From: Leptolyngbya ohadii IS1
GTDB taxonomy: Bacteria > Cyanobacteriota > Cyanobacteriia > Elainellales > Elainellaceae
Assembly: GCF_002215035.1 (NCBI RefSeq)
Contig: NZ_NKFP01000006.1
Coordinates: forward strand, 2,695,080 to 2,759,079
Length of the DNA: 64,000 nucleotides
Reading direction: 5' to 3'
A program made the translations under genes and the position numbers. Shown here piece by piece: positions 8,244 to 12,141 of this stretch. Positions within the stretch are counted from its first letter, which is position 1. Each line of letters starts with the position of its first letter. The notes below the pieces were generated by a model that saw only the letters and a program-made list of their open reading frames with translations, was not told the origin of the DNA and did no database searches.

Positions 8244-9353
8244 TTAGCGCAGGAATTGCTTAAGCTTGCGAAAGGTCTGTTTGAGCAGCTGTGGTCGAAT
8301 CTTGCTCTGAATTGCCCGATGAATTGGAGAAGATGTTTCTGTGGTGGCAAGATCTCGCCAAAGTTCCAGCAGATGGGGACTCGCCTGGTTAAGCTGCCTG
8401 ACCCGATCCTCCAGCGCTATGGATCGGTCAAACGTTTGGCAGGCGTGGAAGACTCGAAGCTGATTCAGTGCCAGCATCGTCATCACGCATTTTTCACATG
8501 CCGAGCAGTTCATCGCACTAGTGTCTGCGTAACAGATTCGCAGGTGTTGCTGCACGAGTGGATTAGAGGCAATCGACTTAATCCGACCAAACCGAATCTC
8601 ATCGGTCTCGTGATGCAACATTTTGCAGCGGCTGGTTGAATAGAGCGAATCAGTCTCTGGATGAGAACCCCAGGGTTGCAGGCGAAACATGGCGTAGCTG
8701 GGGGGAATAATCAACCGTCCGATTTCGCCGGAAAGCAAAATGCCCAGAGCCGTTAGCGCACTTCCATGCAGGCGTTCCCACGAGATGGAGCGAATTAGGG
8801 GATGTTCGCGTAGATTGGTGGAAATTACAATGGGTGCAGTTTGGGTGTGGGCAGCGATTTGATCGAGCGATCGGCGAAAGGCGCTCATTTTGGCAGGTTG
8901 CTTCAGCGGGATATCGTACCCCCAGGCAAAAACGAGCCGACTGACCTCAGCTTGAAAGCTTTGTAGCGAAAAGAACGAATCCACTCCCCCTGTAAAGCAA
9001 ATGCCCGTCCGATTAGACCGATGGGTTGAGCGATAGGTTTCGGCTGCATCAATCGGGCAGTCCGACGAATAGCCCCACCAGCTGCCATAAATTGGGCTGA
9101 GCTTTTGCATTCCCTGCAACCAATCGGCATCGATCGGCGTATTGATTTTGATGCGATAACCGTGGTTTAGAGCAGGCAATAACAGAACGTTCGCAAATGC
9201 TTCGATCGCAGGTTCAAGAATTGCATCGCTAGATTCAAACCAAATGGGACGGTCTTGAACGATCAAACTCACTCTGGATAAAGTTGATAATCGCTCAACC
9301 TGAACATCTTGAAGCTCTATGCAAGTAGATTTCTGAACAACAGCTTGAGCCAT
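8244..9353 (-). CDS. QueC-like PP-loop ATP pyrophosphatase with four-cysteine zinc pattern
   Basis: A 369-residue protein from the ATG at 9353 (an in-frame TTG exists at 9368). At about residues 120-126 it has FTGGVDS, a PP-loop (family consensus SGGxDS, first Ser replaced by Thr). At residues 274-289 it has C-x8-C-x2-C-x2-C, exactly the spacing of the zinc ligands of QueC, the 7-cyano-7-deazaguanine synthase. It is much longer than QueC (about 225 residues): about 115 residues precede the P-loop. No queuosine or deazaguanine genes are nearby, so a role in preQ0 synthesis is not implied. I regard it as an amide- or nitrile-forming adenylating enzyme of unknown substrate. Confidence 0.75.
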   Translation of the reverse strand: MAQAVVQKSTCIELQDVQVERLSTLSRVSLIVQDRPIWFESSDAILEPAIEAFANVLLLPALNHGYRIKINTPIDADWLQGMQKLSPIYGSWWGYSSDCPIDAAETYRSTHRSNRTGICFTGGVDSFFSLQSFQAEVSRLVFAWGYDIPLKQPAKMSAFRRSLDQIAAHTQTAPIVISTNLREHPLIRSISWERLHGSALTALGILLSGEIGRLIIPPSYAMFRLQPWGSHPETDSLYSTSRCKMLHHETDEIRFGRIKSIASNPLVQQHLRICYADTSAMNCSACEKCVMTMLALNQLRVFHACQTFDRSIALEDRVRQLNQASPHLLELWRDLATTETSSPIHRAIQSKIRPQLLKQTFRKLKQFLR

Positions 9354-9464
9354 ATTTTCACTACACAATTAGTCAGCAGTAAAAACCCGCGCAATCGCTA
9401 CACAGGGCTCAGAAACCCTTCAATAGGCTAAGCCTTGCTGCAATGCGAGAGTAATGTTTTATTG

Positions 9465-9479: not shown

Positions 9480-9833
9480 AAGTGATTCTACGCAGCTCAA
9501 ATGCTACCTCCGGCAGAATATAATCTCTTTACAGAAGATTCATGTAAAAGCTTTTGATGTTCTCAATGCCTGTCAAGAAATGGGTTCAAAAACTGGGTTC
9601 AAACGAACCGCGGTATTTCTGAATACTGAGTCATCAATCTCGAAACGCAAATCATTCTAGTTCTGGAACTTATTCAGACGACTTGCGCTGAAGTTTGAAA
9701 CTTCGCCGAAGGAGAGTGTACGATCGCCCCAGTTTCTCCTACTTCACTTGAAAGCAAAACAGGTTCTTGAGGAGAAGTAGCTGTGACGATCGCCCTATAT
9801 TTTGTAAAGGGAAGTGGTCTTTAAGAGGTCGAG
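9480..9833. other. Spacer of about 350 bp with a second palindrome
   Basis: No gene is recognisable. GAAGTTTGAAACTTC at 9690-9704 is another 15-bp near-perfect palindrome, and CTACTTC/GAAGTAG (about 9739-9780) could form a longer hairpin just beyond the 3' end of the PTPA-CTERM gene, perhaps its terminator region. Confidence 0.4.
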
Positions 9834-10348
9834 CTAGGCTACCTCACGCTTTCGCTTTTTTAGAAAAGCAACACCCATGCCAACAAGACCAGGTAGAAGG
9901 GTAGGTGTGGGAATTGGCTGCACTCCATAAGTAATAATTCCCCTAGAATCTGTCTCTGGATTGAAAGGAGCACTGGGATTTACAACTGCTTCAAAGATCG
10001 GAATGCGAAGCATAGGATTATATCCCGTAAAGAATCCGCTGATTGAACCTGGAATTACAATATCTGGACTAATCGGAGATTCAGCAACAACAAAGTCTAA
10101 ACCCAGAAGTACGCCATCCTTGAAATACAGTCTTGGAAAGCCGACTGGACTGACATCATAAGCACCATCACTGAATTGAGTGTAGGTAGTGCCCAGGAAG
10201 TTGAAAACAACTTGGAGCGAACCGTTAAAAGGATTGACGTATGGAACCCGTGTTTTAGTTGGAAAACCGATGTCAATTTCGTCAGTGAGTTGACGGCTAG
10301 GGTCAGTTAGAGCTGCATCATCATAGGTAAAGCTTCCAAGAAAATGCT
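9834..10348 (-). pseudogene. PTPA-CTERM surface protein, C-terminal fragment, disrupted by IS
   Basis: C-terminal part of an exported protein ending in PTPTLLPGLVGMGVAFLKKRKR, a PTPA-CTERM sorting signal: a P-T-P motif, a hydrophobic helix and a basic tail. Proteins of this class are handed to an exosortase-type system and placed in the cell envelope. The reading frame continues exactly into the fragment at 11509-11661 when the IS and one 8-bp target copy are removed, giving an intact protein of about 219 residues with V-L-K-G-E-H-F-L-G-S-F-T-Y-D-D across the join. The fragment now lacks a start and a signal peptide. The mature domain is not recognised. Confidence 0.88.
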
Positions 10349-11508
10349 GGGAGCATCCCACTTATGCAAAAACAGAGAAGGGAGCGACAATAGAGGGGTT
10401 GGGCAAGAGGTAAGGTTGATGACTCCAGAAGAGCAGGAACGGATCAGAGCTTGCAGTCAAGAGATCGCAGAAATTCTGTATCGCAATAGCGACAAAGCGA
10501 GCCTGAAGACGCTAGAGGGGATTGAGCAAACGGTTCGCCAACAGATGCTCGAACACGTTAGTCCGGAAGTTGCCCTTTTTTTGTCAACGGTGCAGTCCGA
10601 CCCGGCAAAGGACGAAGCCGACCGCTAAAGAGTCTGGTGGGTAAGTTGTGCTTGCAAAAGCATCAAGCCGAACGGTTGGGAGTCAAGCCCCGGAGTCGGA
10701 TAAGTGGAGGCTTAGAGAAGGCTTGCTTACGGCTGAGTGCGAATGAGTCATTTCAGAATGCGGAAGCAGACATTGCTGCATTGACGGGGATAGCGGTGGG
10801 GCACTCGACCCAACAACGCTTGGTAGGACGGCAGGCATGGGAGTTGCCGGAGGCGAAACAAGGCGTCAGTGAGATCAGCATTGACGGCGGGAAAGTGCGC
10901 TTGCGTGACCTCCAAGACAGCGACAGCCGATGGCGGGACTATAAAGCAGTGCGGTTGCAGGGAACATACTATGCTGCCTTTTATCAGGACAATGAGAGCT
11001 TGGTCGATTACCTCAATGCTCAACGGTTGCTTAAGCCTGTAGTGTGTTTAGGCGATGGGCATGAGGGGGTGTGGAATCTGTTTGGTCAAATCGCCTCTGC
11101 CGATGAGCGGCGAGAGATTCTCGACTGGTATCACCTCAAAGAGAATCTCTACAAAGTGGGCGGGTCGCTCAAACGCCTGAAAAAAGCTGAGTCCTTGCTG
11201 TGGCAGGGGCAGGTGGAACAGGCGAAGGCACTGTTTGCCGATTGTCAAAGGAAACAGGCGCGCAATTTTGAAGCCTATCTAGACAAACATCGTTCCCGGA
11301 TTGTCCATTATGCCGACACCCAGACCCAACAACTCTGCTCGATTGGTTCAGGGGCAGTGGAATCGGCGGTCAAACAGATTGGGCGACGTTTACAAATATC
11401 GGGGGCGCATTGGAACAGGGTGTCGGTCAATCCGATGTTGAACCTACGCTGTGCTTACCTCAATGGGCTGCTTGCTAGTTGATATTTCTGCATAAGTGGG
11501 ATGCTCCC
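10349..11508 (+). mobile_element. Insertion sequence, ISKra4 family (ISMich2-like), 1160 bp
   Basis: The element has 24-bp terminal inverted repeats starting GGGAGCATCCCACTTATGCA with one mismatch (10349-10372 and 11485-11508). It is flanked by a perfect 8-bp target duplication AAAATGCT (10341-10348 and 11509-11516). GGG ends, an 8-bp duplication, a size near 1.2 kb and two overlapping reading frames fit the ISMich2 group of the ISKra4 family. The element looks complete and recent: both ends, the duplication and the transposase frames are intact. It lies inside a PTPA-CTERM gene in the opposite orientation. Confidence 0.9.
10419..11482 (+). CDS. Transposase, two frames joined by probable -1 frameshift
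   Basis: The first frame starts at ATG 10419 (MTPEEQERIRACSQEI) and stops at 10628. The second is open from before 10577 to the stop at 11482 and lacks a convincing start of its own. The frames overlap at a run of seven T (10576-10582), read T-TTT-TTG in the first frame, a proper slippery heptamer; a -1 slip gives a protein of about 354 residues. DDE-type acidic residues can be placed at SIDGGKV, LGDGHEG and GSGAVESAVKQIGRR. Alternatives are transcriptional slippage on the T run or use of the GTG at 10637. The stop lies beside the right inverted repeat. Confidence 0.85.
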
Positions 11509-11661
11509 AAAATGCTCGCCTTTTAACACTCCCTCCGTGATGTCTACCCGAAAGTTAGTCGTAATCGTAAGGGCTTGAGCGGAACTCGCTGCAATTCCTA
11601 AACCTACGGTAGTGCAGATTGTTCCGGCGATCGCCATTGATAATGCTTGAATTCTAACCAT
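11509..11661 (-). pseudogene. PTPA-CTERM surface protein, N-terminal fragment with signal peptide
   Basis: The start ATG at 11661 is preceded by GGAG. The first 30 residues form a classical signal peptide (MVRIQALSMAIAGTICTTVG, then A-S-S-A-Q-A before the mature start LTITTNF). The frame then meets the IS after G-E-H-F and would run into the element for 18 more codons before stopping. The product would be a short secreted peptide without its sorting signal, so the gene is inactive unless the IS is lost precisely. Confidence 0.88.
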
Positions 11662-12141
11662 GAGAAATCTCCGTCTTGTGTGAATGAATGACGGTAGATG
11701 CAGGTTGATTATGATGAAATTGATTTGAGCAATGAACTTTTGCGAAAGCGAATTAAACCTACAGCCGGAAAAGCAGGAGTTCCTGAATTTTCAGCATGAG
11801 TGAGTTTCAGAAAGCAATAGAAATTCTGAGGTCGAAACTGCGATCGAAAGCCTTCAGAAAGAAACAGAGTTGACCTGCTCTCCTGACAACGAATTAATTA
11901 AGCGAACCGATCAAGCGAAGCAATGAAGCAAATACTGAAGCCATGCTGGCAATTAATCTGCCGCTCAGGGCAATGATTATAGTGACGCTACCGCTGCGAT
12001 CGTGACGTCGAACTTTTGTTTACCCTATTGCTCGAAATTATAATTAGATTTACGGTTTGGCGTCAAACAAATTCTTTGCCCTTGAAAGTGGGCATTTCTG
12101 TCTAAATAGAAAGCTTTTCCTTCGACTTTCTTGACCTTTGG
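11662..12141. other. Spacer of about 480 bp, no gene seen
   Basis: Upstream region of the disrupted PTPA-CTERM gene and downstream region of the copper ATPase. It is AT-rich. I see no coding frame above about 25 codons with a ribosome site and no clear terminator. Confidence 0.4.

What the first reader, a model, noticed from the sequence alone, without database searches (positions are those of the whole stretch)
9834..11661. Fresh insertion sequence splits a PTPA-CTERM surface-protein gene
Removing 10349-11508 and one copy of the 8-bp duplication AAAATGCT restores one open frame with V-L-K-G-E-H-F-L-G-S-F-T-Y-D-D across the join. The host gene has an intact signal peptide and an intact PTP-type C-terminal sorting signal. 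Both pieces and both IS ends are undamaged, so the insertion is probably young.
Basis: seen in the sequence. Interest (0 to 1): 0.6.

Follow-up and report, generated by a model that had tools for sequence, protein, structure and literature searches.

The report
Jumping gene splits cyanobacterial protein gene

Summary
An insertion sequence (IS) of 1160 bp occupies 10349-11508, with 25-nt inverted ends and AAAATGCT on both sides. Taking out the IS and one repeat gives a 219-codon frame on the minus strand. All 15 distant homologues that I aligned run through the join with at most two gap columns. The host protein carries a PTPA-CTERM signal over the curated cut-off. The IS is an ISKra4-family element (NF033572, E 1.6e-77) with the two-ORF, -1-frame layout reported for the ISMich2 group (PMC3942029). 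The genome holds seven identical copies, each with an exact duplication (8 bp in 2 of 7, 9 bp in 5 of 7), plus two diverged copies without one. The insertion is therefore one of a recent burst; two other copies split a methyltransferase and a TniQ-like gene. The sister-strain test could not be completed: the one same-genus genome has no orthologue beyond the C-terminal signal, so the empty site is inferred, not observed. A real, correctly read, ordinary event.

The parts
10349..11508 (+). insertion sequence, 1160 bp, ISKra4 family
   Evidence: seven identical copies in the genome; transposase NF033572 E 1.6e-77
10349..10372 (+). left inverted end
   Evidence: inverted repeat I1, which also takes in one neighbouring base at 10348
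11485..11508 (-). right inverted end
   Evidence: inverted repeat I1, which also takes in one neighbouring base at 11509
10341..10348 (.). target duplication AAAATGCT, first copy
11509..11516 (.). target duplication AAAATGCT, second copy
10419..10628 (+). ORF A of the transposase (first ATG wholly inside the IS is at 10419; the listed frame opens at 10344, in the duplication)
   Evidence: weak match to the N-terminal part of NF033572, E 0.0037
10637..11482 (+). ORF B of the transposase, in the -1 frame relative to ORF A; its open frame reaches further upstream and overlaps ORF A
   Evidence: NF033572 261.4 bits, cut-off 205
10576..10582 (+). T7 run in the overlap of ORF A and ORF B, proposed slip site
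   Evidence: kept in both diverged own copies and in L038, L039 and L040, not found by the same pattern in L041
11509..11661 (-). N-terminal part of the host gene (51 codons, with one copy of the duplication), signal peptide by eye
9834..10340 (-). C-terminal part of the host gene with the PTPA-CTERM signal
   Evidence: NF033465 45.2 bits, cut-off 29

Best explanation
Transposition of an ISKra4-family IS with ISMich2-like layout put a 1160-bp copy into a PTPA-CTERM protein gene and duplicated 8 bp of target. The insert breaks the frame: translation from the host start codon reads 51 host residues, then 17 from the IS, then a stop, so signal peptide and sorting signal are no longer in one protein. 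The event is recent and is one of at least seven insertions by identical copies. Shown: the element, its ends, the duplication, the identical copies and the split frame. Inferred: order of events, loss of function, export of the intact protein, and slipping at the T7 run to make the full transposase.
For: Seven identical copies, 7 of 7 with exact duplications. Frame restored on removal and 15 of 15 homologues continuous through the join. NF033572 over its cut-off, NF033465 over its cut-off. Duplications of 8 or 9 bp and a conserved two-ORF, -1-frame layout in the ISMich2 group are in print (PMC3942029, section 11 read). The same-genus genome G001 has no IS end within 2 mismatches and only two weak transposase matches, E 2.7e-5 and 8.0e-4.
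Against: No empty site in any genome was seen. The rebuilt gene scores lower in codon usage (-0.019) than every one of 31 long frames of the window (0.119 to 0.396) and is poorer in G+C (44.7% against 52.9%), though it beats its five other frames and 500 of 500 shuffles. Gene conversion could keep copies identical for longer than their age.
Confidence: 0.95

Rival explanations
1. The host gene was already a pseudogene or out of use before the IS arrived, so the insertion did no harm.
For: Codon usage below all 31 training frames of the window and low G+C; no close orthologue found.
Against: 219 codons without a stop, the start, the PTPA-CTERM signal and the motif at the join all kept. Foreign origin or amino-acid make-up would explain the codon usage as well.
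Confidence: 0.1
2. The C-terminal fragment is still made, from a start codon in the left IS end, as a protein without signal peptide.
For: The 175-aa frame 9834-10361 opens at a GTG inside the left IS end.
Against: The promoter scan of 9700-11900 found one site, on the other strand and outside the IS; 1.8 are expected by chance. The scan does not cover all promoter types.
Confidence: 0.05
3. The split is an assembly error.
For: Repeats of 1160 bp can be misplaced in assemblies; reads were not available.
Against: Each of the seven copies has its own exact 8- or 9-bp duplication at the IS ends, which a misjoin would not make.
Confidence: 0.02

Closest known systems
ISKra4 family of insertion sequences (NCBIfam NF033572); ISMich2 group of the p-MULT 4 transposases (PMC3942029)
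   Same: Transposase over the NF033572 cut-off; two ORFs in -1 relation; duplications of 8 or 9 bp; inverted ends in the printed range of 18-39 bp.
   Different: No difference in kind found. Relatives on plasmids reach 66.7% identity in ORF B; 28 plasmid records match, and the listed ones include ISOni1 and ISMic1 family names. Placement in the ISMich2 group rests on layout only; no tree was made.
PTPA-CTERM sorting-signal proteins of cyanobacteria (NCBIfam NF033465)
   Same: 45.2 bits against a cut-off of 29; one of nine such signals over the cut-off in this genome, which also has three exosortase genes.
   Different: This gene is split by an IS. The other eight were not examined for insertions beyond the tool's report that no stop lies inside the match.

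Membership tests
ISKra4 family IS | transposase over the NF033572 curated cut-off | tested here: met
   ORF B 261.4 bits, cut-off 205; the related ISH6 and ISLre2 models stay below theirs (55.6 of 240 and 54.4 of 200)
ISKra4 family IS | inverted ends and a target duplication of 8 or 9 bp | tested here: met
   25-nt inverted repeat; 8 bp in 2 of 7 and 9 bp in 5 of 7 identical copies; not met in the two diverged copies, which show none; printed range in PMC3942029
ISMich2 group | transposase in two ORFs joined by a -1 frameshift | tested here: met
   layout and T7 run; that slipping happens is not tested
ISMich2 group | place in the transposase tree | not tested
   no ISfinder reference sequences were fetched and no tree was made
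PTPA-CTERM protein | C-terminal signal over the NF033465 curated cut-off | tested here: met
   45.2 bits, cut-off 29
PTPA-CTERM protein | signal peptide, and an exosortase in the genome | tested here: inconclusive
   signal peptide by eye only; three PF09721 matches over the cut-off; that any of them acts on this protein is not tested

The most novel reading that the evidence does not exclude
The IS acts as an on/off switch of an exported protein in the population, by precise excision of the IS and one 8-bp repeat.
Probability: 0.03. Interest if true: 0.45.

Novelty: new member of a known kind. Interest (0 to 1): 0.15.

Why it matters
It is a clean example of a recent IS burst breaking genes in a cyanobacterium, and a reminder that such a locus is easily annotated as two unrelated short genes. 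It has little wider importance.

Tried and rejected
Sister-strain test. The C-terminal part of the host protein was sought in 60 genomes, the own one included (23 of 60 match, nearly all in the C-terminal signal only), the first 200 residues of the rebuilt protein in 386 genomes drawn from the phylum, the own one included (14 of 386 match), and the rebuilt protein in one scan of genome contigs (41 stretches matched a peptide pattern, none was confirmed as a relative). Only distant homologues and no empty site were found. Synteny: the neighbour 8244-9368 has no match in G001, G002 or G006, so I did not pursue it.

IS distribution by exact end sequence: 14 stretches in genome contigs, from four organisms (11 from one uncultured cyanobacterium MAG, one each from Xenococcus sp. 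PCC 7305, the MAG Xenococcus sp. MO_188.B8 and Nostoc sp. CHAB 5836). In the three of these 14 loci that I checked for a second end (L089, L091, L094) the pattern found none, so they gave no further duplications.

Promoter and terminator scan: one site of each kind, not above chance (1.8 and 2.4 expected). Recombination between the two diverged copies as the cause of their missing duplications: no match of 3-12 bp in any of six flank combinations.

Papers. 'PTPA-CTERM' gave no hit in the held library. ISKra4 with cyanobacteria gave 7 papers, ISKra4 with frameshift 5, PEP-CTERM with exosortase and cyanobacteria 9. I read passages and section 11 of PMC3942029; all others I saw only in the listing with the start of the abstract.

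Full report
Observation. The window carries a 1160-bp element at 10349-11508 with inverted ends (96% complementary over 25 nt) and an exact 8-bp repeat AAAATGCT on either side. The host genome (7.9 Mb, 8 contigs) holds seven copies identical over all 1160 bp, each flanked by an exact duplication of its own: 8 bp at the window copy and at C6:3961485, 9 bp at the other five. Two further copies on contig C1 are 88-89% identical to this one. They have no mismatch to each other, only two gap columns, and show no flanking duplication.

Host gene. Removing the IS and one repeat gives one frame of 219 residues on the minus strand. I aligned 15 homologue loci to it: L010 and all 14 loci that are not the window's own. 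The other 18 foreign loci match mainly in the C-terminal signal and were left out. All 15 align through the join: 0 gap columns at residues 47-55 in 8, one in 5 and two in 2. In 12 of 15 the join is followed by G-x-x-x-Y-D-D as in the rebuilt protein. The joined sequence is therefore very probably the original one. The last 25 or so residues match PTPA-CTERM (NF033465) over the cut-off. The genome has nine such signals over the cut-off and three exosortase genes; two of the nine signals lie within about 2.6 kb of one exosortase gene (coordinates).

Element. ORF B matches ISKra4 transposases at E 1.6e-77; Pfam gives only UPF0236 below its cut-off. ORF A and the ORF B frame overlap in -1 relation with a T7 run at 10576-10582. 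The run is kept in both diverged own copies and in three relatives of 72-75% DNA identity, L038 to L040; the same pattern was not found in a fourth, L041, at 69%. PMC3942029 (section 11 read) reports this two-ORF layout for the ISMich2 group, and duplications of 8 or 9 bp for the whole set of families, so the mixture of 8 and 9 bp seen here is expected. Insertion upstream of promoters, which that paper ties to some members of the ISKra4 group (passages), was not tested. Plasmid records hold 28 relatives of ORF B, the best at 66.7% identity.

Age. No difference among seven copies of 1160 bp (8120 bp in all) puts the mean divergence below about 4 in 10,000 by the rule of three (my arithmetic; gene conversion is a caveat). 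Seven of seven duplications are exact. The one same-genus genome, G001, has no IS end within 2 mismatches, no DNA match (where 2 of its 22 first-look candidates were scored) and only two weak transposase matches, E 2.7e-5 and 8.0e-4. This fits arrival or expansion after the two species parted. In the family, 12 of 36 genomes, the own one included, have such an end; by DNA similarity 60 of 195 genomes, the own one included, match some part of the IS.

Other insertions of the burst. Reading across the empty sites, the copies at C6:3961485 and C6:1547305 split a methyltransferase (254 aa) and a TniQ-like protein (541 aa); the copy at C6:737005 sits at the start codon of a short PIN-domain frame (domains over the Pfam cut-offs). 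At the other three sites, C6:3147633, C4:547053 and C4:523491, the frames that span the junction are short or doubtful (62 to 177 aa).

Consequence. Translation from the host start codon yields 68 residues, 51 of the host and 17 from the IS, so signal peptide and sorting signal are separated. Loss of function is inferred. Against a simple reading: the rebuilt gene has unusual codon usage, below all 31 long frames of the window, though above its five other frames and 500 of 500 shuffles. An earlier loss of constraint, or foreign origin, is not excluded.

Verdict. The event is ordinary: a known IS family, a known duplication length and a known kind of consequence.

Noticed in passing
L036 (own contig C1:1339563) and L029 (own contig C1:1045820): Two diverged copies of the IS have no mismatch to each other (two gap columns) yet neither has a flanking duplication; the ORF B frame of L029 is broken.
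   Followed up: partly
L033, own contig C6:737005: An identical IS copy sits at the start codon of a short PIN-domain frame, and the 9-bp duplication includes the ATG.
   Followed up: partly
genomes G011, G032, G004 and G008 of the same family: Many IS-like ends with 1-2 mismatches (51, 22, 21 and 19 sites); some may be short elements without transposase.
   Followed up: no
own contig C6:1422346-1425686: An exosortase gene with two PTPA-CTERM signals within about 2.6 kb, perhaps a dedicated sorting unit.
   Followed up: no
window 8244-9368: A 374-aa frame without a Pfam match at E 0.01 and without a match in three relatives, but with two distant paralogues (26-28%) in the own genome.
   Followed up: no
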